Source: Rhodocyclaceae bacterium
Lineage (GTDB): Bacteria > Pseudomonadota > Gammaproteobacteria > Burkholderiales > Rhodocyclaceae
Direction: 5' to 3'
Length of the DNA stretch: 49,522 nt
Assembly: GCA_030682175.1 (NCBI GenBank)
Contig: JAUXOM010000120.1
Span: 1 to 49,522 of the forward strand
The notes beneath the pieces were generated by a model. The model searched no databases, was not told where the DNA came from, and worked only from the letters and a program-made list of their open reading frames with translations. The translations under genes and the position numbers were made by a program. Of this stretch, positions 2 through 48,588 are shown in pieces (the first letter of the stretch is position 1; every line of letters starts with the position of its first letter).

Positions 2-1564
2 GCCGTCACCAATCCGCAGCCACGCACCGGCAAGAAGGACATTTCGCAGGAACAGAAAAACCTCAGGCAGGTGATGCTCGGCGTGCTGGATGCCGTGCGC
101 GACGAGTCGAACGAAAAGGACCCCGTGCGCATCGTGCTGGAGCCGCGCAGCTCGCGCGTAGCGCAGGACGAATTCATGGCCGTGCTGCTGGCGCGCACCA
201 GCCTCGAAGCCAACGTTTCGCTCAACATGACGATGATCGGCACCGATGGCCGGCCGGCGCAAAAATCGCTGCTGACCATCCTGCACGAATGGATCGCCTT
301 CCGCCACGCCACGGTCGAGCGGCGCACCGCGCATCGACTGGCCGAGGTCGAACGGCGCCTGCACATCCTCGATGGCCGCATGACGGCTTACCTCTCCATC
401 GACAAGATCATCAAGACCATCCGCGCGGCCGACGAGCCGAAAGCGGAACTGATGGCGAAGTTCAAGCTGTCGGAAATCCAGGCCGAGGACATCCTTGAGA
501 TTCGCCTGCGCCAGTTGGCGCGCCTTGAAGGCATCAAGATCGAACAGGAGCAGCAGGGGCTGACCGCGGAGGCCAAGGAACTGCGCCGCGTGCTCGAAGA
601 CCGGGGCGCACTGACCAAACTGGTCGTCAGGGAAATCACCGAAGATGCGAAGAAATACGGCGATGCGAGAAGAACGCTGATCGAATCCGTCGCCCCCATC
701 AGCACCGCCGAAGTCGCCATTCCCGACGAACCGGTGACGGTGATCCTCTCGGAAAACGGCTGGGTACGCTCACGCCAGGGACATGGCATCGACCCCGCCA
801 GCATCGCCTACAAGAGCGGCGACCGTCCGCTGCTGGTGATGGAAGCGCGCACCGTCTGGCCGCTGGTGATCATCGACACCCACGGACGGGCTTACAGCGT
901 GCGCGTCGCCGACCTGCCGGGCGGCCGCGGCGATGGCGCGCCCATCAGCACCTTCGTCGAATTTCAGGAGGGCGGCAAACTCGCACAGTCCATCACCGAC
1001 GCCGCCGATGCGCAGTATCTCTTCGCCAACTCGGGCGGCTATGGCTTCATCGCCAGCATTGGCGACCTGGTTTCGCGCAATCGCGCCGGCAAGGCCTTCA
1101 TGACCCTCGAAAAGGGCGAGCAGACGCTGGTTCCGGCAAAAGTCGGCGCCGGGCCGTCCCAAGCCGACGCCCCCCCTGTGGGGGGCAGCGAGCTGGGGTT
1201 GCGAGCGCGGGGGGCCAACAATGTCGGCGCTGGTGGGACGGCGCTAGCCGGATCCACCGCCAATAAAGGGACGGCGGCAGCGATCTCGCAGGCCGGCCGA
1301 TTGCTGGTTTTCCCGGTGGCCGAACTGAAGACGATGAGCAAGGGGCGCGGCCTGATCATCCAGAGCATCGGCCCCAAGGAGCAACTCGTGGCGGTCGCCG
1401 TCGGCGATGGCGCGGCATTCACGGTGACCGGCATCGGGCGTGGCGGCAAAGCCGCCGAATACCGGATGACCGCCAAGGAACTCGCCAGCCATTGCGGCAG
1501 TCGTGCCCGCAAGGGACAGCAGATCGCTTCGAAGATCAAACCGACCGGTCTGGTGGCCGGGTAG
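2..1564 (+). CDS. parC: DNA topoisomerase IV subunit A, C-terminal part (5' end outside window)
   Basis: ParC with ParE forms topoisomerase IV, which decatenates daughter chromosomes. The frame is open from base 2, so about 520 residues of the C-terminal portion are present and the breakage-reunion core with its active-site Tyr lies upstream. The visible part covers the end of the core, the coiled-coil region, and a beta-propeller-like C-terminal domain with the ParC-type stretch LPGGRGDGAP. Residues about 380-414 of the partial protein are a repeat-derived insertion (KVGAGPSQAD...VGAGGTAL) between propeller blades, encoded by the hairpin element at 1139-1243. Reading continues in frame to the stop. 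GyrA is less likely because the degenerate GyrA box fits ParC better. Confidence 0.95.
   Translation, partial: AVTNPQPRTGKKDISQEQKNLRQVMLGVLDAVRDESNEKDPVRIVLEPRSSRVAQDEFMAVLLARTSLEANVSLNMTMIGTDGRPAQKSLLTILHEWIAFRHATVERRTAHRLAEVERRLHILDGRMTAYLSIDKIIKTIRAADEPKAELMAKFKLSEIQAEDILEIRLRQLARLEGIKIEQEQQGLTAEAKELRRVLEDRGALTKLVVREITEDAKKYGDARRTLIESVAPISTAEVAIPDEPVTVILSENGWVRSRQGHGIDPASIAYKSGDRPLLVMEARTVWPLVIIDTHGRAYSVRVADLPGGRGDGAPISTFVEFQEGGKLAQSITDAADAQYLFANSGGYGFIASIGDLVSRNRAGKAFMTLEKGEQTLVPAKVGAGPSQADAPPVGGSELGLRARGANNVGAGGTALAGSTANKGTAAAISQAGRLLVFPVAELKTMSKGRGLIIQSIGPKEQLVAVAVGDGAAFTVTGIGRGGKAAEYRMTAKELASHCGSRARKGQQIASKIKPTGLVAG
1139..1243 (+). repeat. Hairpin element with flanking 24-nt units, in frame inside parC
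   Basis: Left arm GTCGGC (1142-1147), 15-nt loop GCCGGGCCGTCCCAA (1148-1162), right arm GCCGAC (1163-1168). A body with a C6/G5 hairpin (about 1171-1185) follows, then the terminal unit GTCGGCGCTGGTGGGACGGC ending at 1243. The start of the terminal unit repeats the left end directly. Very similar copies lie in recB and recC. The whole copy is translated. Confidence 0.9.
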
Positions 1565-1595
1565 CGTGGTGGCAAGGGGTAGCGGGGTCAGGGGG

Positions 1596-1623
1596 CTGGC
1601 AAACTATTCCAGGCTGTTATAAT
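1596..1623 (+). promoter_or_regulatory. Candidate sigma70 promoter for the CxxC small protein
   Basis: A perfect -10 TATAAT (1618-1623) has a weak -35 CTGGCA (1596-1601) 16 nt upstream. The ATG of the next gene is at 1634, so transcription would start only a few bases before it and the mRNA would have almost no leader. No Shine-Dalgarno sequence is visible. Confidence 0.55.
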
Positions 1624-1633
1624 CCGCAGGCTT

Positions 1634-1879
1634 ATGAGTACAGTGAAAAAAGAACCCGCTACCCGCTACTGCTATCACTGCCGCACCCACCATCCGGTGG
1701 AGGAGATGAAGCTGCTCGTCACCAAGACGGGCTCGCGCTGGCGTTGCATCAAGAGCATCGAAGCCGTGCGCCGTTCGAAGGATGAGCGGGACCAGTACGG
1801 TCGAGAGGTCTCTGCCGCCAATCAGTCAGAAGCTTCCAGCCGGGCGCGCATTCTCAACAAGATACAGTCGGAAGGTTGA
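1634..1879 (+). CDS. Small conserved-looking protein with CxxC motif, function unknown
   Basis: 81 residues, basic and soluble, with no signal peptide or membrane segment. The N-terminal half has YCYHCRTHHP (Cys13, Cys16, His19 or His20) and RWRCIKS (Cys38), a spacing that could bind one zinc ion. The C-terminal half is charged and probably helical. It resembles short zinc-ribbon-like hypothetical proteins found in betaproteobacteria, but I cannot assign a function. The gene stands alone between parC and the convergent recD and has its own -10 box immediately upstream. An alternative start at the internal Met near 1706 would remove the CxxC. Confidence 0.6.
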   Translation: MSTVKKEPATRYCYHCRTHHPVEEMKLLVTKTGSRWRCIKSIEAVRRSKDERDQYGREVSAANQSEASSRARILNKIQSEG

Positions 1880-1894
1880 GGAGGCACTGATCAA

Positions 1895-1968
1895 GTCCGT
1901 CACACCGGCGCAGGCCGGTGTTCAGGTTTTTGACTTTTCTGGATTCCGGCTTGCGCCGGAATGACGCA
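1895..1968. repeat. REP-type inverted pair (REPIN-like), possible bidirectional terminator
   Basis: Two hairpins sit back to back: ACACCGGC-gcag-GCCGGTGT (1902-1921) and ATTCCGGC-ttgc-GCCGGAAT (1943-1962), joined by a T-rich spacer. The two halves are inverted copies of each other (CTG...CCGG...TGCGCCGG...TGACG). The pair fills the gap between the convergent ends of the CxxC gene and recD. Such GTCATTCCGG...CCGGAATCCAG repeats are common in proteobacterial genomes. Confidence 0.75.
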
Positions 1969-1979
1969 ATCTGAATTGA

Positions 1980-3698
1980 TCAGCTCTCCCCAAGCTTGTC
2001 GCGAAGACCAGACATGCGTCCGGCGCGGTTTGCGCACGCCGCTTGCAGCACGGCTTCTGTCGCCCACAGGCTGAGGTGGCTGCGTGATCGTGTCACGCCG
2101 GTATAGACCAGTTCGCGCGTCACCACCGGCGAGGCAGTTGCGGGCAAGGCCAGCAGAACGCGCGCGAATTCCGATCCCTGCGCCTTGTGCACCGTCATCG
2201 CCCAGGCCACTTCCCAGTCCGGCAGGCGGGCAAAGGGAATCCAGCGCAGTGCGGCCGATGCGTTATCCCCATTGCCGGCAAAGCAGACCTTGAGGCTGCC
2301 GTCGACCGGGTCGGGCAGGGCCAGGCCGATATCGCCGTTGTAAAGCCGCAGCAGCGGATCATTACGCACCACCATGACCGGCATACCCGGCTGCGCGAGA
2401 ACTTCATCGGGCGGTGTCAGCGCCCGGTTGATCGCGGCAACATCTTGCCGGTGCGCACAGAGCACGCGGAAGCGACTGAAACGTTCGAAGAGTTCGCCCA
2501 CCGGCAAGCCGGCTGCCACGGCCTCACGATAGGCGTGGTAACCGTCCTGCACTGCCGCCGCCAGAGCCTGCGGGGCAACTTGCGGCTGCCAGTCGAGGTC
2601 AATTGTGCCCGCCCCGAAATCGCCGCTGTGCGGCGATCCCCCCTCAAGGGGCCAAGAAACACTTGGAGCGGGGGCGGCCCGGCGTGTTTCTTGAGCGGCG
2701 GCTTGCAACTGATCGATGGCACCCGGCGCATCGCCCATCCGCAGGCACTCGGCGAGCCGGCCGATGCCGCTCGTCCCGGCAAAGCGGAAACTGGCCGTCA
2801 GTGTCGCCACGCAAGGCGCCAGGCGCTCGCTGGAGCACAGGTCGGCAAAGACCGCGCCGGCCTCGACGGCGGCCAACTGGTCGCGATCGCCGAGCAGGAT
2901 CAGGCGGGCAGCGGCGGGCAATGCATCGAGCAGATGCGCCATCAGCGACAGGTCGATCATCGAGGCCTCATCGATCACCAGCACATCCACCAGAAGCGGC
3001 CGTTCCCGGCAGTGATGGAAACCGCCGCCATCGGCGCGCATGCCCAGCAGACGATGCAGGGTCATCGCACTGTGCACCGGAGCGGACGCACCCGTTGCAC
3101 CCAGCGCTTCGCTCATGCGCGCTGCTGCCTTGCCGGTGGGTGCGGCAAGGGCGATGCGCAGCGGCGCCGCGCCGGCTTGGGCGGCCTGCTGGTGCAGCAA
3201 GGCGATCAACCGCGCCAGCGTGGTCGTCTTGCCGGTGCCGGGGCCGCCCGAGATCAGGGCCAGGCGATTGACCAGGCCGATGCGTGCTGCCGCACGCTGA
3301 CCGGCATCGGTAAAACTGCCGAGCAGCGCCGCTTCCATTTCCGCATCAAGCACCGCCGGAGCCGTCGCCCGCGCCAGCAAGTCCAGCGCCACCTGCTGCT
3401 CATAGGACCAGTAGCGCCGCAGGCTCAGCCGCCGGCCATCCCAGACCAGCGGGGTCGGATCATCGGCGCCGCCGACAATGCTCAGGTCCGGCAGGCGTGC
3501 ACGCAGCCCGGCGCGCTCTTCGTTATTCATCTCGCCCGCCCAGGGTCCCCAGCCCGCCTCCTGATCGAGGTCGGCGCAGACATGGCCATCCTGGGTAGCC
3601 TGACAGGCCAGCGCCACGGCCAGCCGCGCAGCGGGATCGTCACCGCCCAGATAGCGCGACAGATGGGCAACGATGGGCGGAATGGCTAGCTTGGCCAT
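1980..3698 (-). CDS. recD: Exodeoxyribonuclease V alpha subunit RecD
   Basis: RecD is the 5'-3' helicase of RecBCD, which resects double-strand breaks and loads RecA. The protein has 572 residues. Walker A GGPGTGKT is at 151-158, Walker B VIDEAS near 241, and the C-terminal superfamily 1 motif VHKAQGSEF near 503-511. Residues about 333-358 (from RRAAPAPSVSW to SGDFGAG) are encoded by a repeat element (2625-2700) and interrupt the helicase in frame. It is the last gene of recC-recB-recD and overlaps the end of recB by 13 nt, which suggests translational coupling. Confidence 0.93.
   Translation of the reverse strand: MAKLAIPPIVAHLSRYLGGDDPAARLAVALACQATQDGHVCADLDQEAGWGPWAGEMNNEERAGLRARLPDLSIVGGADDPTPLVWDGRRLSLRRYWSYEQQVALDLLARATAPAVLDAEMEAALLGSFTDAGQRAAARIGLVNRLALISGGPGTGKTTTLARLIALLHQQAAQAGAAPLRIALAAPTGKAAARMSEALGATGASAPVHSAMTLHRLLGMRADGGGFHHCRERPLLVDVLVIDEASMIDLSLMAHLLDALPAAARLILLGDRDQLAAVEAGAVFADLCSSERLAPCVATLTASFRFAGTSGIGRLAECLRMGDAPGAIDQLQAAAQETRRAAPAPSVSWPLEGGSPHSGDFGAGTIDLDWQPQVAPQALAAAVQDGYHAYREAVAAGLPVGELFERFSRFRVLCAHRQDVAAINRALTPPDEVLAQPGMPVMVVRNDPLLRLYNGDIGLALPDPVDGSLKVCFAGNGDNASAALRWIPFARLPDWEVAWAMTVHKAQGSEFARVLLALPATASPVVTRELVYTGVTRSRSHLSLWATEAVLQAACANRAGRMSGLRDKLGES
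2625..2700 (-). repeat. Hairpin element copy inside recD
   Basis: On the coding strand the arm CAAGAAACAC (2693-2684) pairs perfectly with GTGTTTCTTG (2662-2653). The loop GCCGGGCCGCCCCCGCTCCAA-type sequence has 21 nt, six more than the other copies. It is followed by GGCCCCTTGAGGGGGG and a second hairpin, ATCGCCGC/GCGGCGAT. The 10-bp stem differs in sequence from all other copies in the window. The element is translated in frame. Confidence 0.85.
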
Positions 3699-6600
3699 GT
3701 GTGCACAGCCAATAAAGCATCGTCCGGCCGCGTGAAAAATACCCCGGCCTGGCTGCCTGGCCCCATGCCGCGCAGGAACAGATAGAACACGCCGCCGAAG
3801 CTTTCCGTCCAGTCGAGAGCGGGCTCGCGCAGCAGCAACGCGCGCTTCAGGGCGGCCGCATAAATGCGCAGCTGCAGGTCGTAGCGGTGCGCGCGCATCG
3901 CCTCCGCCAGACGCTCCGGCGTGTAGTCAGCGCCATCGGCGCCCAGCCAGTTCGATTTGTAATCGACGATGTACCAGCGCCCTTCATGCCGGAACACCAG
4001 GTCGATGAAACCCTTCATGTAACCGGCCTGCGCCGCCGGCGACCCAAGCGGGTAGGTAAATTCCAGTTCGATCAGGCGTTCGTTGCGCGCCACTTGCGCC
4101 AGACACAGGCCATCGGCATTCAGCGGCGTGGCCACGACATCGGCCACCAGGCGTTCGAGCACCGGCCGCCATTCTGGCGGGTAGGCGAATTCCTCCAGCA
4201 CGGCGGCGGCAACGGGCCCCACTGCGGCAATGGCCTGAAAGTCCACGCGTTCGAGCAGCGCATGCAGACAACTGCCGGCGCGCGTGCCGCGCGGGAAAGC
4301 ATGGATGCTGGCAAAAGTCGGCGCCGGGCCGTCCCAAGCCGACGCCAGCCCCCCTGTGGGGGGCAGCGAGCCGAGTTTGCGAGCGTGGGGGGCCAACAAA
4401 GTCGGCGCCGGCGGGACGGCGTGAAACGCGACAGCGGGAACGACCGCATCGCGATCCGCCGCCGCTTCGTTGCCCAGACGTGCCGCCAGGCTGGAAAAAC
4501 TGCTGACGCGCCATGGCGCACGAATCGTCCCGACAAATGGGCGCGCCATCAGCACATGTGCGTCGGCCCTGGGGGCCGCCACGACCGGGGTGCCATCCAC
4601 CGGCAGGGGCACAACCGCCATTGCCCCTTCCAGTCCGGCGGCCAGTGCGACGATCTCCGCCTGCAAAGCGGCCTCGTCCAGCTTGCCCAGTTTGTCGGCA
4701 AGTTGTGCGCGTGGATTGCCAGCCACGCCGGCATCTGGCGTGCGAGGCGCGAACAGCAGCCAGGCGAGCGGCGAACGCTCGCACTGATTCACCTTGCCCC
4801 AGGCGACGATGCAGCGATGCTCGGCACGCGTCAGCGCGACATAGGCCAGGCGCAATTCCTCGGCGGCATCTTCGAGATCGGCCTGCTGGCGCAGCGCATC
4901 GATTTGCGCGGAGCCAAAATCGAGGCAGGCGTGATTTTCAGCATGCGCAAACACCGGCCAGCGCTTGGCATCGAAGCCCGGTCCGTCCCACAGGAAGGGG
5001 CAGTAGACGATGGGATATTGCAGGCCCTTGGCGGCGTGAATGGTGACGATGCGCACCAGTTGTGCGTCGCTTTCCAGGCGCAGTTGCGCCTCCTCCGATT
5101 CGCTGGCTTCGCGCGCGCGCGCCAGATGGCGCGCCAGGCCTTCGATGTCGAGCGCGCCGGCGTGTTCGGCCGCCTGCAACAACTCGGCCAGATGGCGGTA
5201 ATTCGTCATGCGCCGCTCGCCGTCCGGGCGCGCCAGAATGCGCGCGACGACACGTTCACGCCGCAGCAGGCGCCGCCACAGCGCCATGAAGCCGCGTTCG
5301 CGATAGAACAGCAGATCGTCGTGGAAACAGCCCAGGCGCTCACTCCAGGCGCGCTCGTCGGCTGCCCATGCGGCCAGTTGCGCCGCATCGCCACCGAGCA
5401 GCACCGTCGCCAGCGCCGCCCGCACCAGCCCCTCGCGCGCCGGGGCGGCCACGGCAAGCAGCACGCGCTCGACCTCCTCGGCTTCGTCACTGTGCCAGAC
5501 GCTGCCGCCACCCAGCGTGACGCTGGCAATGCCGCGCCGCGCCAGGGCTTGCTTCACCACCTCGCCCTGCTGATGCTTGCGCACCAGCACGGCAATGTCG
5601 CCACCCGCCAGCGCGCGCGTGCCGATTTGCGCCCGGCCCGTCGCCGCAAGCGCCAGCAGTCGCGCAATGTCGGCGGCCACCGCGCTGGCCACCAGCGGCT
5701 GCGCCACCTCTTTCGTCAGCCTGCCCTCCCCTTCCGGCTGCGTCAGCGTCCACAACGTCAGTGCCGCCGCATTGCCGTTGTCATCATCGATGCGGCAGCT
5801 GGCGCGGGTCATCTGTGCCGCTTGGGCCGGTGCAAAAGCCAGGCCGTCAAGCAGGAAGGGCTGCGGACGCGCGAACAAGGCATTCACGGCAGCCAGCAAA
5901 GGCGCATCGGAGCGCCGGTTTTCCAGCAGTGCATAACCGGCGTCGACCTCCTGCCGCGCAGACAGATAGGCAAACACGTCCGCGCCGCGAAAGCCGTAGA
6001 TGGCTTGCTTGGGGTCGCCGACGAACACCAGCGGATGTCCCTGCTGGCCGAAAATCCCAAAAAAGATATCAAGTTGCAGCGGATCGGTGTCCTGGAATTC
6101 GTCGATCAGCGCCGCCCGGTAGCGATTGCGCAGGGCGCTGGCGAGTGCTGCGCCGGAAGGTCCCTGCAGCGCATGGGCCAGGTCGGCGAGCAGGTCGTCA
6201 TAGGCCATCTGGCCGCTGCGGCGCTTCCTGACAGTCAGTTCGGCACGCGCCGTGAGCAGGAAGTCATGCAGCAGGCGGCGTGTGGCATTTTCGTACACGG
6301 CACCGAGGCTCTCGGCCGCCTGCAGAAGTGCGTCGACCGCGCCAAAGAACGCATGTTCGACCGGCGGGCTGGCTTTGGTGATTTTCTCCTTGATCTTCGC
6401 CAGCCCGAAATATGTCATGGCATCGGGCAAGGGGAAAGGCTCGCTTGCGCCGGCGAAGATCTGGTCGAGCAGATCGATTCTGGGCTGCAATTTCTTCGGT
6501 GCATAAACACCCTGATTCAGTTTGGCAGCGGCCAGCCAGGCGCAGATTTTCGCGGCATCGCTTTGCCAGAGCGTGCGCGCCGCGGCAAAGGCGGCGGCAA

Positions 6601-7246: not shown

Positions 7247-7251
7247 GCTGT

Positions 7252-10200
7252 TCAGCCCTCATTGACTTTTCCGGCAATCGCCGCGCGCAGCGGGCCGAAG
7301 ATCTGCACGGCCAGTTGCTGGAAGGCTGCGCCAAGGGGATCGTCCGTCCGGTCGCGCAAGGCCAGCCGCAAATAGGCATCGTCGCGCTCGCCGGGAATCT
7401 TCTGGAAGCTGTTGCCCAACCAGGCACTGCGCCAGCCCGACTTTCCTTCCAGCCAGGCCCAGGCCGTCTTTGGATAGAACGGCAGCGGCGCGCTTTGGCC
7501 TTGTCGATACAGTGCCAGCAGTTCAGCCAGTGCTGCGGCGGCCCCGTTGAGCGGCGGCAACACCGTCACGCCATTATTGGCCAGCAGCACGCTCTGCTTC
7601 ACCATGCCGGGCGGCGCGGCAAGCTGCATCAGCAGGTGATCGATCCACAAGTGCAACAGGTCCTGCGGGCGGGTGCTGCCGAAACGCAGGCGCCACAGAC
7701 CATGCGCCGTGAGGCGTTCAAGGCGGCCGCTCAGGCCGGTTTCCCCATCGTCGAAACGCACTTCGATTGGCGGCAAGACTGCGGCCGTGACCCAGGCATG
7801 GGCGGATTGCCATAGCGCCTGGGCTTCATCCTGTGCCGCCGCACTGGCAATGCCGCCAACCACGCCATGCGGCAGCCAGCCCCGCGCGCGCAGCAGGCGC
7901 GTGGTTTCCTCAGCAGGCGCACCTGCCTTGAGACCGGCGAAATGCGCTTCACGCAGGCGGTAATTGTCGAGATTGTCGGTCACGAAGGGTTCGTGAATTT
8001 CCAGCAACTCTTCGCTTTCTTCAAGATGAATGCCCAGTTGCTCGCGCAGGTAAAAGCGCACCGGGTGGTCGAAAAAGCGCTGCAGTCGCCGCACTTCAAT
8101 TAGCTCGCCAGCGGCGGGCACGGACACTGGCACTGGAATATTGCCCAGAAACGGGCTGGCGCTGCGTGCCGCGCGGGTGGCACCAGTGGCACAACTTGCG
8201 CTGCATTGCTCGGCATCGAAACTGAACAGCGCTGGCGCAAGCTGATCGAAATACGCCGGACTGAAAGGCTGCAAGGGATGTTGCACGACCAGTTCCGCGA
8301 CGGCCTTGCCGGTCATCGTCGCCAGCGTGTCGAGCAATTCGGCCAGCGGCGCAGCGGGGGGAAATTCGACATTGCTGCGCGGGTCGCGGCCGGTGTAGGT
8401 GACAACGAGGGAATCTTTGGCGCACAGCAGCGTTTCGAGGAACGCGTAACGCTCCTCGCCACGATGGTTGCGGTCACCCGGCCGGGGATGCCGCGCGATG
8501 AGGTCGAAGCTGACCGGCGCGGCAGGACGTGGCCAGGCGCCGTCGTTCATGCCGACCAGACACAACACCCGCGCCGGCAGCGGACGATTGGGCTGCAAGG
8601 CGGCGATCGTCGCCGCGCCGGACGCAAAGGCCCGCGCCGGCGCGCGCTCGGTCAGCGCTGCGTCAAGTTCGCGCAACATGACCGCCAGCGGCAGCCGGAC
8701 TTCGCAGCGGGCTGCGCGCGCATGCGCAGCCAGTTCGGCAAGCGCGGTGCGGATGCCTTGTGCTTCGTCCTCTTCGGTTTCGGTCGGAGCGAGAAAGCGT
8801 TCCTGAGCCTCGTTCAGAAAATCGACCCACTCAAGCGCCGTCCCGCCAGCGCCGACTTTTACGGCCCCCCACGCTCGCAAACCCGGCTCGCTGCCCCCCA
8901 TGAAATCACCCGAAGCGGTGACGGGGGGGCGAGCGTCGGCTTGGGACGGCCCGGCGCCGACTTTCTGCACCAGCACGAACAGACATTCGGCATAGTCGAC
9001 AAAGCGGCCCAGCAACTCGGCACGACCACCCTCGATACCGGCCACCGGCAACACCTCGCCATACAAACGTTCCGGCTCATCGGGCATGGCGACGCCCAAC
9101 AGCAAGCGCTGCAATCCGGCGCGCCAGGTATGGGCGTCATCCGCCGGCAAGCCACGCCGCTGGCGCGCGCGGCCATCCAGGCCCCAGCGGATGCCCGCCG
9201 TGGCGACCCAGTCGCGCAACAGCGGCAGTTCGCTTTCGGCGAGGTCAAAGGCACGCCGCACGGCCGGCTCTTCCAGCAGTCCCATGACACTTTCGGCGTC
9301 GAGTTCGCTTTCAGCCACCGCGCACAGACGGCGCAGCGCACGCCACAGCGGCGCGGCAACCAGCGGACGGTCCGCCACCATGCAGGGGATCCGCCGCGCG
9401 GCAGGCGCATGCATCAGCACCGCCTCGATGGCTGGCGCATAGGCTTCGATATCCGGGGTGAGGATCAGGATATCCGCCGGATGCAGGTCGGGCATGGCCT
9501 CAAACAGGGCCAGCAGTCGATCGTGCAGCACCTCGGCCTCGCGCAACGGCCCGTGACAGGCATGGATCTGCAGCGAGGCGTCGGGGGGGATCCCGATGCT
9601 GCTGTCGAGATCGAGAATATCCCGCTGCAAGCAGCCCAGCAATGTGACTGGCGCAGCAACAAAATAATGATGTTCCTGGGTCGGCAGCCGCTCGCCCGCT
9701 TCGGTCAGGCGGGCCAGCGCATGCTGGCGCGCCCGTCCCAGCGAGGCCAGCAGGGGATGGCCCGCTTCAATCAATGCGGCCGTTTCGGGTTGGTCGATTG
9801 CCATGCGCAGTCGCACGCGCACCCGGTCGATGTCGCCCCAGTATTCACGGCAGGGCGCCAGCACGAAGACATGCAGATCGACCCATTCGGCCAGGCCGAG
9901 GAACACTTCCCAGTAGAGCGTAGGCATCGACTCGACGGCAAACAGATTGATCCGCCGCGGCAGACGGGCCCGCGCCCGCGGATCCCGCCGCAACTGCGCC
10001 ATGAAACGTTCGCGCGGATGCTCGGCATTCACTTCCGGCAGTTCGCCGATCAGGGTACGCCACAAGTCGGCCTGCCAGATCTCGTCCGGCCCAAGTCCCA
10101 GCAGCTTGCCTGCGCCCCAGAATTCAAGCCAGTCGGGACGCTCGACCAGGTAGCGATCAAACTGGGCAGCCAGCCGGCTGGCGAGTTCGTGGCGTTTTAT

Positions 10201-10545: not shown

Positions 10546-10578
10546 GACGAAGCGATTCTAAGCCGGCATGGACGGGTG

Positions 10579-10614: not shown

Positions 10615-10638
10615 ACGCATGTGCTGACTTAAACCGCA

Positions 10639-10786
10639 GCCTTTCCGCCGGGCCGCCCCAAGGAAAGGCGGCACGCGGCGCCAGCCGCAACCCGCACCAC
10701 AACCCGAATTACGCGCCCCAATACAAACGAGCGCAGCGAGCCACAGTCACCTCCCCCGCGAGGGGGAGGCCGGGAGGGGGTGGGAC
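10639..10786 (+). repeat. Hairpin element copy between rplI and recC
   Basis: GCCTTTCC (10639-10646), loop GCCGGGCCGCCCCAA (10647-10661), GGAAAGGC (10662-10669): a perfect 8-bp stem. A spacer shared with the bamB copy follows (GGCACGCGGCGCCAGCCGCAA and AACGAGCGCAGCGA), then a second hairpin CCTCCCCC-gcga-GGGGGAGG (10750-10769) and a G-rich tail that reaches the rplI stop. Non-coding here. Confidence 0.88.
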
Positions 10787-11236: not shown

Positions 11237-11250
11237 GGTTTATCTCCTCG

Positions 11251-11526: not shown

Positions 11527-11541
11527 ATCAAAATCCTTTTA

Positions 11542-37085: not shown

Positions 37086-37116
37086 GTTCGCCTCTGTTAA
37101 ATTTAGTCAAACTCGG

Positions 37117-38532: not shown

Positions 38533-38560
38533 GGCCAGGATTCCTGCGGGAAGTCGGAAA

Positions 38561-40527: not shown

Positions 40528-40590
40528 GTGACGCCCAGGCAGGTGAAGATCAGCCGGACGCTGCGGCCCCCGGAAAGACGCTATGAATGA

Positions 40591-40854
40591 TCAGACGCAA
40601 TGCTTCTGGCCGATCCGGAAAACCAGCAACAATTGATAAATCTCGTCCTTCAGCTTGACGCGCATCTTCTTCATGTCCTCGAGCGTGAAGTCGGCCACGG
40701 GCATGTCATGCACCTCAAGATCCTCGACCTTGCCGGTCAGTCGGTCGTGACGGGTACACATTGCGGCAAAACGGCCACTCTCCGCCTTGAGAGTGTCGAT
40801 CGCATCGCGCATCTCAGGAAATTCGCTATAAAGGTCGTGGTGATCAACGTGCAT
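40591..40854 (-). CDS. DUF465 / YdcH family protein
   Basis: 87 residues, all helical and charged (EFPEMRDAIDTLKAESGRFAAMCTRHDRLTGKVEDLE...LKDEIYQLL). The pattern FxxLxxxHxxLxxKI...LKKxRLxLKDEI is that of DUF465 (YdcH), small proteins that probably form helical hairpins and whose function is unknown. It lies between aroC and the MFS gene. Confidence 0.88.
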   Translation of the reverse strand: MHVDHHDLYSEFPEMRDAIDTLKAESGRFAAMCTRHDRLTGKVEDLEVHDMPVADFTLEDMKKMRVKLKDEIYQLLLVFRIGQKHCV

Positions 40855-40904
40855 GTTTCTCTCCCAAGTTTGGCATGCTATTGGATATGGTTAGATGAAT
40901 CTTA

Positions 40905-42014
40905 TCAGGCAGGACCGGACGGCTTGGCCGGGATGGCCGGGGTCGGGCAGCGGACGTCGGCGCACTGCGCCCGATACAGCAGGGCCGCATCCATCAGCAC
41001 CAGCGCCAGCATCGCTTCGGCAATCGGCGTGGCGCGGATGCCGACGCAGGGATCGTGGCGACCATGGGTCTCCACCGTGGTTGGCTGGCCAGCCAGGTCG
41101 ATCGAACGGCGTGGCAGGCGAATGCTCGAGGTCGGCTTGATGGCGATGCTGACGGTGACATCCTGCCCCGAGGAAATGCCCCCGAGAATGCCCCCGGCAT
41201 GATTGCTCAAGAAACCCCGCGGCGTCAGTTCGTCGCCATGTTCGCTGCCGCGCTGGGCGACGGCAGCGAAACCGGCGCCGATCTCGACACCCTTGACGGC
41301 GTTGATGCCCATCATGGCATAGGCGATCTGGGCATCGAGCCGGCCATAGACGGGATCGCCCCAGCCCGGCGGGACATTGGTCGCCGCCACTTCGATGCGC
41401 GCGCCCACCGAGTCGCCATCCTTGCGCAACTGGTCCATGTAGGCTTCCAGTTCGGGCACGATGGCGGCATTGGGCACGAAGAACGGATTGCTTTCTATCA
41501 CCGACGCGTCGACGAAGGGGATGACGATCGGGCCCAGTTCGCTCATCCAGCCACGTACGCTAATGTTGTAACGCTGGTGCAACCACTTGCGGGCGATGGC
41601 GCCAGCGGCGACGCGCACGGCTGTTTCGCGCGCCGAGGAGCGCCCACCGCCGCGATAGTCGCGGATGCCGAATTTTTGCCAGTAGGTGTAATCGGCGTGG
41701 CCCGGCCGGAAACTCTGGGCGATGTTGCCGTAATCCTTGCTGCGCTGATCGATGTTGCGGATCAGCAGGGCAATCGGCGTGCCGGTGGTCTTGCCCTCGA
41801 ACACGCCGGAGAGGATCTCCACCTTGTCGTCCTCGCGCCGTTGGGTCACATGGCGCGAAGTACCCGGTTTGCGGCGGTCAAGCTCGCTCTGGATGTCAGC
41901 CTCACACAAATCAAGGCCAGGTGGACAGCCATCGACCACGCAGCCGATGGCCGGACCATGCGACTCGCCGAATGAGGTCACGCTGAACAACGTGCCAATG
42001 GTGTTACCGGACAT
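40905..42014 (-). CDS. aroC: Chorismate synthase
   Basis: AroC makes chorismate from EPSP using reduced FMN, the last step of the shikimate pathway. 369 residues. The start [24 protein letters not shown] is the family signature; [30 protein letters not shown] and the C-terminal [22 protein letters not shown] are also conserved. Its product feeds trpF/B/A encoded elsewhere in the window. Confidence 0.98.
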
Positions 42015-42131
42015 CAGGGATCAGGAAACTGGTGAGGATGAATGGAGTCTATCACGGCGACTTTGCTCTGGTGGTTGTCGTACCCGCCAGGGAATTTCGC
42101 ACGGAAACTGCTAACAGGACATGCCTGGCTG

Positions 42132-42458
42132 CTAGCCGCATTTAAGAAATTTTCGCTTATCGGGGCGTCCCAGCCATTCATCCGCATCCGCTGGCGGATC
42201 CTTGCGCTCGATGATGGGCGGCCATTGCTTGGCCAGCTTGGCATTCAGGGCAAGCATGTCCTGCTGATCCTCCGGCACATCCTCTTCGGCAAAAATCGCC
42301 TCGGCCGGACATTCGGGGACGCACAGCGTGCAGTCGATGCACTCGTCGGGATCGATGACCAGAAACTCCGGCCCCTCGCGGAAACAGTCGACCGGACAGA
42401 CATCCACGCAATCGGTGTATTTGCACTTGATGCAGTTTTCCGTCACCACATAAGTCAT
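42132..42458 (-). CDS. fdxA: Ferredoxin FdxA (7Fe type)
   Basis: 108 residues. The N-terminal half has [18 protein letters not shown] and the second cluster motif [12 protein letters not shown], the arrangement of [3Fe-4S]/[4Fe-4S] ferredoxins of the FdxA group. The C-terminal extension ending in [16 protein letters not shown] is usual for these proteins. A soluble electron carrier with unknown partners. Genes on both sides are separated by 60-120 nt that hold no gene. Confidence 0.95.
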
Positions 42459-42523
42459 CGCATCACCCTCCGTATCATCTTCGCCCAGAGCAGACTGGTC
42501 TGCCGGTATTCAGCTGCAGTGCC

Positions 42524-43849
42524 TCACTTCTTGTCGACATAGGGATTCTTGGAAACCTTGAACTGGATGCGTAGCGGCGTGCCTTGCAGCTTGAAGGTCT
42601 CGACGAACACATGCTCGAGGTAGCGCACATAAGCGGATGGTACGTGTTCGAGTGCGTTGCCGTGGATAATGACAAGCGGCGGGTTGCTGCCACCCTGATG
42701 AGCATAGCGCAATTTTGGCCGGACGTTGCCATGGCGCGGCGGCGCCTGCTTTTGCACGGCATCGAGCAGCACACGGGTGAGTTTGGGCGTGGTCAACTTG
42801 GCCATCGCGGCAGCGTAGGCGCGGTCGACTGATTGCAGCACACCAGCCACGCCCTGCCCTTTCAATGCGGAGATGTAATGGACGCGCGCGAAACCAAGAA
42901 AGTTGAGCTTGCGGGCTATGTCCAGTTTGACCTGATCGCGACGGTATTGGTCGATGGCGTCCCATTTATTTACCGCCAGCACCATGGCGCGACCGGCTTC
43001 GATGCAGAAGCCGGCGATATGCGCATCCTGATCGGAAATGTCCTGGCTGGCATCGACCATCAACACGACGACGTTGGCGGCCTCGATGGCCCGCAGGGTC
43101 TTGACCACCGAAAATTTCTCGATGGTTTCGAAGACGCGCCCCTTGCGCCGCAGGCCGGCGGTGTCAATCAGCGTATAGCTCTTGCCGTTCCGCTCGAAAG
43201 GCGTGGCAATGGCGTCGCGCGTGGTACCCGGCATGTCGAAGGCGATCATGCGTTCTTCGCCGAGCAGGGTATTGATGAGCGTGCTCTTGCCGACGTTGGG
43301 GCGGCCGGCGATGGCGACGCGCGGACCGCTGGCATCGTCTTCCGCGGCTGGCTCGGGGGGGAAATCCGCCAGCGCCAGTTCCAGCAGTTCACGCACGCCC
43401 TCCCCATGGGCCGACGAGACGACGCGTGGCTCGCCGCAGCCGAGTTCATGGAATTCGGCGGCCACCACATCGCGGTTCATGCCCTCGGCCTTGTTGACGA
43501 CGAGATGCAGGGGCCGCCCGCTCTTGCGCAGTCGTTCGGCGATCACCTTGTCCTGCGGGGTAAGGCCTGCGCGGCAGTCGACCAGGAACAGCAAAACATC
43601 GGCCTCGGCAATCGCCGCCTCGGCCTGGAGCGCCATTTCATGGACGATGCCGTCCTTCGCCTGCGGCTCGAAGCCGCCGGTGTCGACAACCAGAAACGGG
43701 CGGTCGCCAAGCCGGCCATGGCCGTAATTGCGGTCGCGCGTCAAACCGGGCTGGTCCGCCACCAGCGCGTCACGCGTCTTGGTCAGACGATTGAACAGCG
43801 TGGATTTGCCGACGTTGGGACGGCCAACCAGGGTCAAAGTAGGTAGCAT
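42524..43849 (-). CDS. der: Ribosome biogenesis GTPase Der (EngA)
   Basis: Der is a tandem GTPase needed for 50S assembly. 441 residues. The first G domain has GRPNVGKST (9-17) and DTGG; its G4 motif reads NKAE rather than NKAD. The second G domain has GRPNVGKST near 182-190, DTAG and NKWD. A C-terminal KH-like domain ([20 protein letters not shown]) follows. The ATG follows the bamB stop without a gap. Confidence 0.98.
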
Positions 43850-45163
43850 TTATTTTATGGCCAGCGCATGTACGGCGCCATTTTTCGTCTGCACGACGAA
43901 GCTGTCGTCCGCGCTGCCCAAGCGCCGGGGCGCGGCGGAGATCGCCGAACCATCGGTGGTGAGCCGCGCGGCAAAGGCGCCGTCTTCCGCGGACAGCAGG
44001 TGCACCACGCCCTGAAAGTCGGCGATGGCGACATGGCGACCAACGGCCAGAGGCCGTGACACCGCGCGCATCGTCAGCTTGTCCTGCTTCCAGAGGCTTG
44101 CGCCGCTATTGCGGTCGAAAGCGTGCACCGCGCCCTTCTCGTCGGTGACGAAGAGGGCCCGATTGCCGATGTCGAGGCCATTGATGGAAGAAACATCGCG
44201 CGCCCATTGCAGATTGCCATTGCTCGTGTCAAAACAGGCGGCCCGTCCCTGATAGGCGACGGCGCAAACGCTGCGTCCGGCTACGACAGGATCACTCGCA
44301 ACATCGGCAATCCGTTCCAGTTCGGTGACGCCGCGCGGCAGGGCAACAGTGCCCTCCCATAGCGCCGCCCCGTTGCTGAGGGCCACGGCGACCAGCTTGC
44401 CGCCGGGAAAGCCGGCATACAGCGCATTGTCGGCCAGCGTCACCCCGACCGGGGAACGCAGGGCCAGCGCGGGCGTGCTGCGTTGATAGACCCAACGCCG
44501 CTTGCCATCGGCCACTTCAAAACCAAAGATGCGCGCGTCACCGCTTCTGACGGCGACGAGATCGCCAGCGACTGCGGGAGCGGCGAGAATCTCGGAACTC
44601 ACCCGCGCCCGCCAGGCCGGGCGGCCATCCGCCGCATGAAATGCCAGCACCTCGCCTTTGGCTGTGCCGACAACCACCAGCTTGTCGCTGGCGCCGACGC
44701 CACCCGAGATCGCCTGACCGGCGTTGCTGCGCCAGACCTGGCGACCGTCATCGAAGCGCGCCAGCGTGCCATCCTTGGCCGCGGCAAAGACACTGCCGCC
44801 AACCACGGCAGGCGTAAATACAAACTCGCCGGCATTGCCGACGCCGGCCTGCCAGAGCTTGGTCAATTCGGCGCTGGGCTTGATGGCAACCAGTTCGGCA
44901 GGCTTGACCTTCGGGGCGGACGAAGAAAAGGGGTTGAGCTTGTCTACGGTGGAACTGATCGTCGAGCAACCGCTAGCGCCCAGCAACGCGGAAAGAGTCA
45001 GCATAAAAACCCAGCGTTTGCGCAGGGCCGTCCCAAGCAAACGCGGCACGCGGCGCCAGCCGCAATCCGCTCCACTGCCAAGAGAAGAGCCCCGTAACAA
45101 ACGAGCGCAGCGAACCGTTAAGAACCCCCCGCGAGGGGGGCTAAGGGGGGCGGGTGTTTTCAC
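43850..45163 (-). CDS. bamB: Outer-membrane assembly lipoprotein BamB, start uncertain because of a repeat element
   Basis: BamB is a beta-propeller lipoprotein of the BAM complex. PQQ-like propeller repeats (GTLARFDDGRQVWRSNAGQ, GKRRWVYQRSTPALALRSPVGV, ...) fill the mature part. The lipobox LLGASGC fixes the signal peptide. Three starts are possible: the GTG at 45163, coupled to yfgM (GTGA), which puts 53 repeat-encoded residues before the signal peptide; a non-ATG codon near LRKRWVF; or the ATG at 45004, which leaves a signal peptide of only 12 residues without its basic end. The hairpin element at 45014-45158 has evidently replaced or displaced the original 5' end. Confidence 0.93.
   Translation of the reverse strand: MKTPAPLSPPRGGFLTVRCARLLRGSSLGSGADCGWRRVPRLLGTALRKRWVFMLTLSALLGASGCSTISSTVDKLNPFSSSAPKVKPAELVAIKPSAELTKLWQAGVGNAGEFVFTPAVVGGSVFAAAKDGTLARFDDGRQVWRSNAGQAISGGVGASDKLVVVGTAKGEVLAFHAADGRPAWRARVSSEILAAPAVAGDLVAVRSGDARIFGFEVADGKRRWVYQRSTPALALRSPVGVTLADNALYAGFPGGKLVAVALSNGAALWEGTVALPRGVTELERIADVASDPVVAGRSVCAVAYQGRAACFDTSNGNLQWARDVSSINGLDIGNRALFVTDEKGAVHAFDRNSGASLWKQDKLTMRAVSRPLAVGRHVAIADFQGVVHLLSAEDGAFAARLTTDGSAISAAPRRLGSADDSFVVQTKNGAVHALAIK
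45014..45158 (+). repeat. Hairpin element copy at the bamB 5' end
   Basis: GCGTTTGC (45014-45021), loop GCAGGGCCGTCCCAA (45022-45036), GCAAACGC (45037-45044): a perfect 8-bp stem. The spacer shared with the rplI copy follows, then CCCCCC-gcga-GGGGGG (45125-45140) and a G-rich tail running to the yfgM stop. In the bamB mRNA the arm nearest the gene, GCAAACGC, encodes part of the basic end of the signal peptide (RKR). Confidence 0.9.
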
Positions 45164-45807
45164 GCCGCGCCTCCAGCATCCCGCTTGGTTTCCAGAATCT
45201 CACGGTAAGGAGAGCCTGAACCGGCTTCAGCCGGCAGCAATTTGATCGCCTCGTCGTAAGCGGTGCGCGCTTCGGCGGCCTTGCCCTGCGCCGCCAGGAT
45301 ATCGCCCTGCACTTCCAGGAAACGAGGCTTGAAAGTCGGCGCTGGCGGGACGGCGAGTCGCTGCAGCGCTGCGTCATAGGACTTGTCCTCGGCCAGCACG
45401 ATGGCCTGGCGCAGGCGCGCCAGATCGCGCAGCGCGGGATCCTTGGCATTATCGGCAGCCCAGCCAAACTGGGCCTGGGCAGATTTGAGGTCGCCCGCGT
45501 CAACCAGCACCTTGCCCGACAGCATGGCTGCCATGCCCGCGTAGGCAGTTCTTGAGTGCTTGTCGATCAGTTCGCCTGCCAGCAGGCGTACGCGCTTGGC
45601 ATCCTGTTGCACCAGCGAGCGCTGCAGCTCGCCATACAGTTGCGAGGCCTGCGCGGACTGCGTGCGGTCCCACCACTGCCAGCCCTGCCAGCCGACCACG
45701 CCGACGGAGAGTGCCACGATCACCGCTGAAATCAGCGCGCCGTGCACTTTCCACCAGGTCTTGAGCTCTTCGAGTTGTTCCTGTTCTTCGAGATCGTAGG
45801 TTGCCAT
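45160..45807 (-). CDS. yfgM: YfgM family TPR-like membrane protein
   Basis: YfgM is an inner-membrane protein linked to the SecYEG/PpiD periplasmic chaperone network. The ATG at 45807 (MATYDLEEQEQLEELKTWWK) gives 215 residues. One membrane helix (ALISAVIVALSVGVVGWQGWQWW) precedes a TPR-like helical region (AYAGMAAMLSGKVLVDAGDLKSAQAQFGWA). LAVPPAPTFK is encoded by a stand-alone unit at 45332-45355. The ribosome-binding site GGAGGA (45819-45814) lies in one arm of a hairpin element. Confidence 0.93.
   Translation of the reverse strand: MATYDLEEQEQLEELKTWWKVHGALISAVIVALSVGVVGWQGWQWWDRTQSAQASQLYGELQRSLVQQDAKRVRLLAGELIDKHSRTAYAGMAAMLSGKVLVDAGDLKSAQAQFGWAADNAKDPALRDLARLRQAIVLAEDKSYDAALQRLAVPPAPTFKPRFLEVQGDILAAQGKAAEARTAYDEAIKLLPAEAGSGSPYREILETKRDAGGAA
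45332..45355 (+). repeat. Stand-alone 24-nt unit in yfgM
   Basis: AAAGTCGGCG (45332-45341) + CTGGCGGGACGGCG: the commonest form, antisense to yfgM. Translated as AVPPAPTF between two TPR helices. Confidence 0.8.
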
Positions 45808-45811
45808 CACA

Positions 45812-45920
45812 GTTCCTCCGCAGGACCGTTCCAAGGAGGAACAGCCAAAACATGGAGCGGGCTAGGCCCGCAAATAATCGTCATCCCCTTGCTCGGGAAG
45901 GGGGATGGGGGGGTGGGGAT
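45812..45920 (+). repeat. Hairpin element copy between hisS and yfgM, overlapping the yfgM ribosome-binding site
   Basis: GTTCCTCC (45812-45819), loop GCAGGACCGTTCCAA (45820-45834), GGAGGAAC (45835-45842): a perfect 8-bp stem. The loop differs from the others at two paired positions (GGG/CCC becomes GGA/TCC). The body has GAGCGGGCtaGGCCCGC and a second hairpin ATCCCCTT-gctcggg-AAGGGGGAT. The mRNA copy of the left arm is the GGAGGAAC Shine-Dalgarno sequence 4 nt before the yfgM ATG. Confidence 0.9.
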
Positions 45921-45925
45921 CATAA

Positions 45926-47239
45926 TCATTCCTCTGAGTTATCTTCGTCGGCGCCATACAGCCAGTCGCCGACACGTTCTGCCAGTTCATCGAGCGCTAC
46001 GCGCTGCTGCTCTGCTGCCGCACGCAGGGGCTTTAATGTCACTGCGTTGGCGGCGGCTTCGTCATCGCCAATAATTACCGCCAGTTGGGCGCCAGAAGCA
46101 TCGGCGCGCTTGAATTGCGCTTTGAAACTGCCGCCGCCCATGTGCGTAAACACGCTGAAACCATTGTTGCGCAGCATCTCGGCCGCCCGGAAAGCCAGCC
46201 GTTGCGCGCCATCGTTACCATGGCCCTGATGCACCACATAGACATCAGGCGCAAACTCATCTGCGACGTCGCCTTGCGCCTCGAGCAGAGCCATCAGTCG
46301 TTCGATGCCCATGGCAAAACCACAAGCCGGCGCGGGCTTGCCGCCGAGTTGCTCGACCAGGCCATCGTAACGGCCGCCCGCGCACACCGTACCCTGCGCG
46401 CCAAGTTGCTCGGTCACCCATTCGAACACGGTGAGATTGTAATAGTCGAGACCGCGCACCAGTCGCGGATTGATGCGGTAGGGAATCACGGCGTCCTTGA
46501 GGAGTTGCTGGACGCCCTCAAAATGCTTGAGGGAGAGCTCGCCCAGATAGTCCATCAACTTGGGGGCACCCTCGACCAGCGCCTGCATCGCCGGATTCTT
46601 GGTATCCAGGATGCGCAGCGGGTTGCTGTGCAGACGGCGGCGCGCTTCTTCGTCCAGCTGGTCGGCGTGGCTTTCCAGGTAGGTGATCAGCGCGCTGCGG
46701 TGCTGGGCGCGCTCCTCTGGCTGGCCGAGCGAATTGATTTCGAGCTTGATGCTGCCGTCGGCATTCAGGCCGAGATCGTCCCACAGCCGCGCGCACATGA
46801 TGATCTGCTCGGCGTCGATGTCCGGCCCCGACAGGCCAAGCGCCTCGACGCCCACCTGATGAAACTGCCGGTAACGGCCCTTCTGCGGCCTTTCGTGGCG
46901 GAACATCGCCCCCAAATACCAGAGACGTTTGGGCCCGTCATACAGCAGGTTGTGCTGCAGCACAGCACGCACGCAGGAGGCCGTCCCTTCGGGACGCAGT
47001 GTCAGTTGTTCGCCGTTCAGGCTATCGGTGAAGGAGTACATCTCCTTTTCGACGATGTCGGTGACGGCACCGATGGCGCGCGCAAACAGCGGCGTCGGCT
47101 CGACCAGCGGCATGCGGATCGGCCGGTAGCCGTATGCCGTCAGCCAGTCACGCACCAGTTCCTCGAAGGCTTCCCAGCGTTCGGCGGCGGCAGGCAGGAT
47201 GTCGTTCATCCCGCGGATGGCTTGTAGCGTTTGACTCAT
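45926..47239 (-). CDS. hisS: Histidyl-tRNA synthetase
   Basis: HisS charges tRNA-His. The ATG at 47239 ([16 protein letters not shown]) gives 437 residues; the longer frame reads back into ispG. Class II motifs: [12 protein letters not shown] (motif 2 region with [21 protein letters not shown]) and GFAMGIERL (motif 3); histidine-specific [15 protein letters not shown] and GGRYDGL. The start overlaps the ispG stop by 4 nt. Confidence 0.98.
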
Positions 47240-48588
47240 GAATGTTTTGGGTAGTTGCGTTCGATGTAGGCGTCGATGATCTGCCTGAATTCGGCGGTGA
47301 TGTTCTCGCCACGCAGGGTGGTGATGCGTTCGCCGTCGGCATAGACCGGTGCGACCGGCTCTTCCCCCGTGCCGGGCAGCGAAATACCAAGGTTGGCATG
47401 CTTGCTTTCGCCGGGGCCATTGACGACGCAACCCATCACGGCAAGCGTCATGTTCTCCACGCCTCGATGACGCAATTGCCACGTTGGCATGCGCTCGCGC
47501 ACATAGCTCTGGATATCCTGGGCGAGCCCCTGGAATACGGTGCTGGTGGTCCGGCCGCAGCCGGGACAGGCCACGACCATCGGCACGAAAGCGCGCAGGC
47601 CCATGGTCTGCAATATTTCCTGCGCCACCACGACCTCACGCGTACGATCGCCGCCCGGTTCAGGGGTCAATGAAATACGGATGGTGTCGCCAATGCCCTC
47701 CTGCAGCAAGACCGCCAGCGCCGCCGTCGAGGCGACGATACCCTTGCTGCCCAGGCCGGCTTCGGTCAGGCCGAGATGGAGCGGATAGTCGCAACGCGCG
47801 GCCAGGTCACGGTAAATGGCGATCAGATCCTGCACACCCGAAACCTTGCACGACAGGATGATGGCGTCGCCCGGCAGGCCAAACGCCTCGGCCTGGGCGG
47901 CCGATTCAAGCGCCGAGGCAACCATGGCCTCGCGCATCAGGCCCGTGGCATCCTTCGGTTCTGCTCGGCGCGCGTTTTCATCCATCAGCCGGGCCAACAG
48001 GGCTTGATCGAGACTGCCCCAGTTCACCCCGATGCGCACCGGTTTGCCATAACGACAGGCGCATTCGATCATCTTCGCGAACTGCTCATCCCGCCGGGCA
48101 CCCTTGCCGACATTGCCTGGATTGATGCGCAGCTTGGCCAGCGCCGCGGCGCATTCCGGCACTTCGGCGAGCAATTTGTGGCCATTGAAATGAAAATCGC
48201 CGACCAGCGGCACGTCGAGATTCAGCTGCGCCAGCCGCTCACGGATTTTCGGCACGGCAGCGGCCGCTGCGCGATTATTCACCGTAACGCGCACCACTTC
48301 CGAGCCGGCGCGGCAGAGTTCCGCCACTTGCTGCGCAGTCGCAAAGACGTCGGCGGTATCGGTATTCGTCATCGACTGGACGACCACCGGTGCAGGTGTG
48401 CCGGGCGCAGCGCCAGTCGGCGCGCCGCTGCCACCACCGACAGCGACCTTGCCGACCATGACGCGGCGCGTCGAGCGACGTACCGGAATACCCGTGGCGT
48501 TCTCAAGCAAAACGCCGGGCCGCCCCAAGTTTTGCTTGGCCCCCTGGGGGGAGGACGCAGCGAAGCTGCGGCTACGGGGGGGGCTCAT
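47236..48588 (-). CDS. ispG: 4-hydroxy-3-methylbut-2-enyl-diphosphate synthase, N-terminus altered by a repeat element
   Basis: IspG is the [4Fe-4S] enzyme that converts MEcPP to HMBPP in the MEP isoprenoid pathway. 450 residues. [14 protein letters not shown] starts the TIM-barrel part; CPGCGRT and [10 protein letters not shown] carry cluster cysteines. The ATG at 48588 overlaps the rodZ stop (TAATG). Residues 2-28 ([19 protein letters not shown]...) are encoded by a hairpin element; the family's usual N-terminus seems to resume at [23 protein letters not shown] at about 48512 could be the original start. A further Gly/Pro/Ala-rich insert ([15 protein letters not shown]) sits before VVVQSM. 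Confidence 0.95.
48504..48585 (+). repeat. Hairpin element copy at the ispG 5' end
   Basis: CAAGCAAAAC (48504-48513), loop GCCGGGCCGCCCCAA (48514-48528), GTTTTGCTTG (48529-48538): a perfect 10-bp stem. GGCCCCCTGGGGGGAGG, a GCAGC/GCTGC hairpin and a final G8 run follow, reaching the ispG ATG. Translated as the N-terminus of IspG on the opposite strand. Confidence 0.9.

What the first reader, a model, noticed from the sequence alone, without database searches (positions are those of the whole stretch)
1139..48585. Dispersed hairpin family with constant loop and locus-specific, always self-complementary stem
Eight sites share a loop close to GCCGGGCCGTCCCAA: parC 1142, recD 2653, recB 4317, recC 8935, rplI-recC 10639, bamB 45014, hisS-yfgM 45812, ispG 48504. 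The arms are GTCGGC (three copies), CAAGAAACAC, GCCTTTCC, GCGTTTGC, GTTCCTCC and CAAGCAAAAC, each perfectly paired with its partner. So sequence is free to vary in the stem while pairing is kept; the loop is nearly fixed. An ordinary copied repeat would show the opposite. The loop-plus-body orientation is constant: the C-run/G-run hairpin always follows the arm after CCAA. I know similar GGCCGCCCCAAG repeats occur in betaproteobacteria, but not a description of this variable-stem rule.
Basis: seen in the sequence. Interest (0 to 1): 0.88.

Follow-up and report, generated by a model that had tools for sequence, protein, structure and literature searches.

The report
Mobile hairpins with sequence-free stems
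Short jumping DNA pieces in this bacterium and its relatives share a hairpin whose tip is nearly constant while its stem differs between copies yet usually stays self-matching, which suggests that something recognises the tip and the shape rather than the stem's letters.

Summary
All eight window hairpins are where stated with perfect arms. The core occurs 257 times in the 3.49 Mb genome (reversed control 0). Of 99 own-genome copies read, 82 pair at least 7 of 8 stem positions; shuffled flanks average 0.26. Pooled with relatives, 188 of 222 do, against 0-1 when the register is slid, with 56 different perfect stems.

The hairpin is one end of elements of roughly 80-165 bp in at least five subfamilies (A-E, my names). 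Relatives have empty sites. The 'loop' folds too: GCM/AA internal loop, GGR/YCC helix, CCGY tip. Core+G is in 145 of 249 genomes of the family (single hits may be chance); hairpins also occur in two genomes of another family of the order and in viral contigs.

Most likely these are non-autonomous, REP-like miniature mobile elements recognised by apex and stem shape. The enzyme is unknown; Y1/RAYT transposases are not supported. Preserved pairing in variable stems is known for REPs; the apical signature, composite body and range appear new.

The parts
1139..1229 (+). Subfamily C element in frame inside parC: arm 1142-1147, core 1148-1162, arm' 1163-1168; near-repeat AAAGTCGGCG / AATGTCGGCG at 1139-1148 and 1220-1229
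   Evidence: absent in 9 of 10 relatives compared, present in L067; 81-nt insertion against G009
2609..2693 (-). Subfamily B element in recD; arms 2653-2662 and 2684-2693; core with six extra bases; outer end approximate
   Evidence: (absent in 4 of 4 relatives aligned)
4314..4407 (+). Subfamily C element in frame inside recB; arm 4317-4322, core 4323-4337, arm' 4338-4343; repeat AAAGTCGGCG at 4314-4323 and 4398-4407
   Evidence: (absent in 3 of 3 relatives aligned; L063 has another insert there)
8850..8964 (-). Subfamily C element in frame inside recC; core 8941-8955, arms 8956-8961 and 8935-8940
   Evidence: absent in 3 of 3 relatives aligned; 105-nt insertion against G009
10636..10783 (+). 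Subfamily A element just after the rplI stop; arm 10639-10646, core 10647-10661, arm' 10662-10669; ends approximate
   Evidence: (shared with G009, with a C-G to T-A double change)
45011..45159 (+). Subfamily A element between yfgM and bamB; arm 45014-45021, core 45022-45036, arm' 45037-45044; ends approximate
   Evidence: (absent in G009; remnant in G015)
45806..45923 (+). Subfamily D element at the yfgM start; on the other strand arm 45812-45819 looks like a GGAGG ribosome-binding site; core 45820-45834; arm' 45835-45842
   Evidence: (113-nt insertion against G009); a different element sits at the same place in G015
48500..48584 (+). Subfamily B element between the stop of the upstream gene (at 48588) and ispG, near the ispG 5' end; arm 48504-48513, core 48514-48528, arm' 48529-48538
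   Evidence: (absent in G009)

Best explanation
A superfamily of non-autonomous miniature mobile elements. Each has at one end a hairpin of about 6-10 bp with nearly free sequence, capped by a constant module (GCM/AA internal loop, GGR/YCC helix, CCGY tip), and further on a C-run/G-run structure. Shown: hairpin, covariation, subfamilies, presence/absence between close relatives. Inferred: a protein acting in trans (transposase or single-strand DNA processor) reads the cap plus the presence of a stem, so stem letters drift by paired changes and successful variants multiply as lineages. Insertions look tolerated: in frame inside ORFs (C), carrying a ribosome-binding site (D), or next to gene ends (A).
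For: Register-specific pairing: mean 7.3 of 8 against 2.1-3.0 slid; 188 of 222 with at least 7 of 8. Subfamily A: each of 8 pairs Watson-Crick in 59-64 of 65, with two or three pair types at positions 2-7. Left and right sides change in nearly equal numbers on the tree of A bodies. Orthologous double change at rplI. Best-split insertion of 81-129 nt at 13 of the 17 places printed, boundaries uncertain in some. Exact-core counts run from 0 to 257 within the genus. Lone core hits elsewhere in the class lack stems: 12 printed of 13, 0-2 bp each; viral hits split into 55 with 0-4 and 62 with 6-8 of 8 pairs.
Against: No enzyme found; only Y1_Tnp was sought. It is in 12 of 16 high-copy and 14 of 24 zero-copy genomes that I picked (p = 0.33); of 39 Y1_Tnp loci scanned, 23 lie in carrier genomes and 1 of these holds the core, about 1.4 kb away. 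No replichore bias, 83 against 66. Of about 8 same-locus pairs with G009, 1 has a double change, 5 differ on one side only and 2 are unchanged. Some cores in carrier genomes lack a full stem, e.g. one of 6 read in G140 and two of 6 in G126.
Confidence: 0.6

Rival explanations
1. In subfamily C (and partly D) the left arm is not carried by the element: it is the duplicated target. The element brings only cap, arm' and body, and arm' acts as a guide complementary to the target, so a locus-matched stem forms by construction at insertion.
For: Repeats of at least 7 nt between left-arm region and right flank: C 15 of 76, shuffled mean 3.3, maximum 10 of 200 shuffles; D 6 of 35, mean 1.3, maximum 6. 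Six of the 15 share one target; without all GTCGGC-arm rows it is 9 of 65 against a mean of 2.7 and a maximum of 7. The target AAAGTCGGCG exists in relatives without the element at parC, recC and L018, and a near form at L060. A viral contig (L339) has two insertions with CTGATGC on both sides.
Against: Subfamily A shows no excess (2 of 61, mean 1.0) and B little (3 of 35, mean 0.5, maximum 3). Some C rows are tandem copies, where the right flank is the next copy. At L154 the arm is not in the empty site. The same stems recur at unrelated loci, so arms are often carried.
Confidence: 0.17
2. RNA-level function: hairpins near gene ends or starts kept because they affect mRNA stability or translation.
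For: The gene to the right of A elements is on the opposite strand in 50 of 55 called (67 examined), and the gene to the left of D elements in 11 of 12.
Against: In A, G-T mismatches outnumber A-C 15 to 1 on the core strand, which is antisense to that right-hand gene's mRNA; pooled, the excess is weaker: 34 to 18 over distinct stems (p = 0.036), 38 to 23 over all sites (p = 0.07). Rfam gave no match above a gathering score at the elements. Some elements lie inside ORFs.
Confidence: 0.1
3. Pairing is kept by mutation, not selection: template switching inside the hairpin copies one arm onto the other.
For: Perfect arms and one in-place double change.
Against: One-sided mismatches persist at shared loci, e.g. 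the same mismatched arm GCGGTTGC / GCAAACGC in both genomes.
Confidence: 0.08

Closest known systems
REP elements with GTAG or CGTC tags (PMC3733652, passages read; PMC2817692, passages read)
   Same: High-copy GC-rich hairpins, pairing kept while stem letters vary, clusters, some copies inside ORFs, uneven copy number between relatives. Subfamily A has a GYAG stretch at the foot in 57 of 79. GTAG-1 repeats with 5-bp stems are reported in Thauera, perhaps not far from these hosts; I did not compare them.
   Different: The constant signal is apical, not a tag at the foot; GTAG is not among the commonest foot words of B, C and D; elements are composites of roughly 80-165 bp; no flanking RAYT found.
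REPINs, ERIC/RU and RPE-type miniature elements (recalled; REPIN and RU titles and abstract starts in search listings)
   Same: Short non-autonomous insertions, some in frame inside genes.
   Different: None is known to me to have a fixed hairpin cap with a sequence-free stem.
IS200/IS605 ends and guide sequences (recalled)
   Same: Hairpin ends read as single strand; for subfamily C, possible pairing of an element sequence with its target.
   Different: No linked Y1 transposase, no replication-strand bias, possible target duplication in C and D.

Membership tests
GTAG-tagged REP | Unpaired GTAG-type tag at the foot of the stem | tested here: not met
   A: GCAG 48 and GTAG 9 of 79, with the last G inside the stem, so a degenerate GYAG form is not excluded for A; no GTAG among the commonest foot words in B, C, D
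GTAG-tagged REP | RAYT gene flanked by the same hairpins | tested here: not met
   1 of 23 Y1_Tnp loci from carrier genomes holds the core, about 1.4 kb away; 39 of 63 listed matches had loci
GTAG-tagged REP | Palindrome kept by complementary changes, high copy number | tested here: met
CGTC-tagged REP | CGTC tag at the foot, 4-5 nt loop | tested here: not met
   Cap of 15 nt; CGTC not among the commonest foot words tabulated for B-E nor the A heads
Miniature non-autonomous mobile element | Short, empty sites in relatives | tested here: met
Miniature non-autonomous mobile element | Ends shared with an autonomous partner | tested here: inconclusive
   No partner identified; only Y1_Tnp was sought
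Intrinsic terminator | Hairpin followed by a run of T | tested here: not met
   TTTT in the 12 bases after pair 8 in 0 of 222 sites, core strand; the other strand was not tested

The most novel reading that the evidence does not exclude
Subfamily C is a target-guided element: it carries a short guide (arm') next to a constant cap, inserts where the host sequence is complementary to that guide, and the duplicated target becomes the other arm, so each insertion builds its own hairpin. This would be a miniature programmable insertion system whose guides can be read from natural copies.
Probability: 0.13. Interest if true: 0.88.

Novelty: new variant of a known kind. Interest (0 to 1): 0.62.

Why it matters
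It offers a natural experiment with dozens of different stems on one fixed cap, which can separate shape recognition from sequence recognition of hairpins. It also marks a large unassigned family of mobile elements in Rhodocyclaceae, with copies in viral contigs, insertions that arose since the split from a relative about 90% identical, and an unknown enzyme. It suggests ways in which such elements stay tolerable, by supplying translation signals or reading through in frame.

Tried and rejected
RAYT / Y1 transposase as partner: not associated. In one search I chose 16 genomes with 22 or more copies and 24 with none, from those seen. Replication-strand bias as a sign of lagging-strand insertion: none, 83 against 66 after joining clusters under 2 kb; the terminus was taken as opposite dnaA and one genome length was rounded. 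Rfam: only a tRNA at gathering threshold; weak hits looked like chance. Phage and plasmid records by blastn with the rplI-side element: no match. A first direct-repeat test with a wide window was too noisy and was replaced. Mismatch polarity between left arm and right flank looked one-sided by eye, but the way cases were picked favours that outcome, so no claim is made. Before the 222-site count, 18 loci were skipped as lone hits outside carrier genomes; those printed had no real stem. In one search, two of the 19 places were skipped (L143, where G009 has an element with a mutated core, and the second copy of a tandem pair in L151).

Limits: subfamily classes rest on regular expressions; 53 of 200 sites were left unclassed. 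Gene strands are from a codon model trained on 18 window ORFs taken to be genes. Gene names follow Pfam matches; rplI, and parC against gyrA, and yfgM, are by recall. Subscription papers and supplements were not searched.
Full report
Observation. The eight hairpins are present with perfect arms. The pattern GCMGGRCCGYYCCAA occurs 119 + 138 times in the 3.49 Mb genome and 0 + 0 times when read backwards. I read 99 distinct copies of the 257. 82 of 99 pair at least 7 of 8 positions next to the core and 52 all 8; shuffling each left flank gives a mean of 0.26 (maximum 2 in 500 shuffles) for 7 or more. Arms from loci with different left arms pair that well in 477 of 9298 combinations, so the match belongs mainly to the locus or its lineage. 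Pooled with relatives, after skipping 18 lone loci, 188 of 222 sites reach 7 of 8; sliding the partner by 1-3 bases gives 0 or 1 of 222. There are 56 distinct perfect 8-bp stems; the pair next to the core is C-G in 54 of 56, while the other seven positions show all four bases on the left arm.

Structure. Folded as single-stranded DNA, five of the six window hairpins tried give the arm stem, a 3 x 2 internal loop (GCM against AA), a 3-bp GGR/YCC helix and a CCGY tip; the recD stretch I submitted was cut short and did not fold so. Fold energy alone is not always striking: of 200 shuffles, 16, 7, 0, 0 and 8 fold at least as well for rplI, bamB, yfgM, ispG and parC. The R-Y pair of the cap is G-C in 216 of 222, A-T in 3 (two of them adjacent copies in L045), G-T in 2 and A-C in 1. 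Subfamily A adds a fixed unpaired position 9 (never Watson-Crick in 65) and mostly C-G / G-C beyond it.

What the elements are. Copies fall into at least five subfamilies by body: A roughly 145-165 bp, B about 85, C about 80-105, D about 115-125, and a rarer E with 4 sites. Comparison with relatives shows presence and absence. In parC, 9 of 10 relatives lack the element. G009 has a contig of the same length as the named Rhodocyclaceae MAG S2_15. 30 of 95 own sites had an orthologous region among the G009 stretches fetched; 11 held the core in both and 19 no exact core. Of the 19, two were set aside and 17 printed; 13 give an insertion of 81-129 nt by best split, with uncertain boundaries in some. 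One of the two set aside (L143) does hold an element in G009, with a mutated core. Exact-core counts within the genus run from 0 to 257.

Covariation. In subfamily A each of the 8 pairs is Watson-Crick in 59-64 of 65 copies. On a tree of A bodies (77 copies) left and right sides change in nearly equal numbers at the variable pairs 2, 3, 4, 6 and 7: 13 against 15, 17 against 18, 20 against 21, 15 against 18, 22 against 20; pair 5 has 8 against 6. Pair-state changes there are fewer than with shuffled tips on average, so stems are partly inherited with the body. At the rplI element, shared with G009, a C-G pair has become T-A. About eight of the eleven shared places look like the same insertion: one has a double change, five differ on one side, two are unchanged. 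Stem variety therefore seems to come mainly from different multiplying lineages.

Which strand. In A, G-T type mismatches number 15 and A-C type 1 on the core strand; over all distinct stems 34 and 18 (p = 0.036), over all sites 38 and 23 (p = 0.07), over pairs 1-6 26 and 13 (p = 0.05). This suggests, weakly, that the core strand is the one that folds. For A that strand is antisense to the right-hand gene in 50 of 55 called cases (67 examined), which speaks against a role in that gene's mRNA. There is no replication-strand bias (83 against 66, p = 0.19).

Range. Core+G is in 145 of 249 genomes drawn from the family and 50 of 68 genera; many have only one or two hits, some of which may be chance. 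In a draw of 369 from the class 16 matched: the own genome, G389 (51 places), G506 (2) and 13 genomes with one hit each. Of those 13, 12 were printed and have stems of 0-2 bp. Hairpins pairing at least 7 of 8 were found at 6 of 6 places read in G389 and 2 of 2 in G506, both of another family of the order; in four family genomes at 5 of 6, 6 of 6, 4 of 6 and 5 of 5 places read. Among viral contigs 117 hits split into 55 with 0-4 and 62 with 6-8 paired positions; some viral contigs may hold host DNA.

Mechanism. I favour a trans-acting enzyme that reads the cap and needs a stem of nearly any sequence. The obvious candidate, the Y1/RAYT group, is not supported: it is missing from some complete genomes with many copies (G106, G141, G077, G126), and 1 of 23 such loci in carrier genomes holds the core nearby. 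Subfamilies C and D show an excess of direct repeats linking the left arm or its flank to the right flank (C 15 of 76 against 3.3; D 6 of 35 against 1.3, equal to the highest shuffle); A does not. Leaving out all GTCGGC-arm rows, C still has 9 of 65 against 2.7, above all 200 shuffles. In C the repeat often contains the arm itself, and at parC, recC and L018 the sequence AAAGTCGGCG is present in relatives that lack the element. This leaves open that C chooses targets by pairing with arm'.

Known or not. Preserved palindromes with varying stems are described for REPs. The tag, the transposase link and the size do not fit REPs as described in the passages read, though subfamily A's GYAG foot is a reminder of them. 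Sequence strings of core and body gave no bacterial repeat paper in the open-licence library. In RepRanger (PMC12306157, passages only) the words Rhodocycl-, Betaproteobacter-, Azoarcus and Thauera do not occur in the main text.

Noticed in passing
window 45332, 25309, 36759, 39948 and others; 511 places genome-wide: A 23-mer AAAGTCGGCGCTGGCGGGACGGC recurs 266 + 245 times (up to 2 mismatches; reversed control 0). Of 54 places read, 16 had a G009 counterpart printed and about 10 of these keep it. Subfamily C elements in parC, recB and recC sit inside it.
   Followed up: partly
L063 recB region; L135; L167: A variant of the 23-mer is split by a short insert (TGACCGAAGGGAATCCCCGTGGGA-like), perhaps another small element.
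   Followed up: no
window 45806-45923; L142, L009, L021, L145, L159: D elements appear to supply a GGAGG-like ribosome-binding site, and at L142 perhaps the start codon, of the neighbouring gene.
   Followed up: partly
G126:C1 about 4.93, 5.18 and 5.32 Mb; G389:C1 about 1.48, 2.69 and 4.09 Mb: Tandem arrays of the core at 79-84 or 147 bp spacing.
   Followed up: no
L362, L370, L373, L376, L379, L386, L390, L399, L401: Nine viral contigs carry the same hairpin with a GATCATGGCG-type stem in the same flanking sequence, suggesting inheritance within a phage lineage.
   Followed up: no
window 45800-45935 against G015 (L103, L112): Two different elements of this superfamily sit in the same short gap before yfgM in different genomes.
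   Followed up: no
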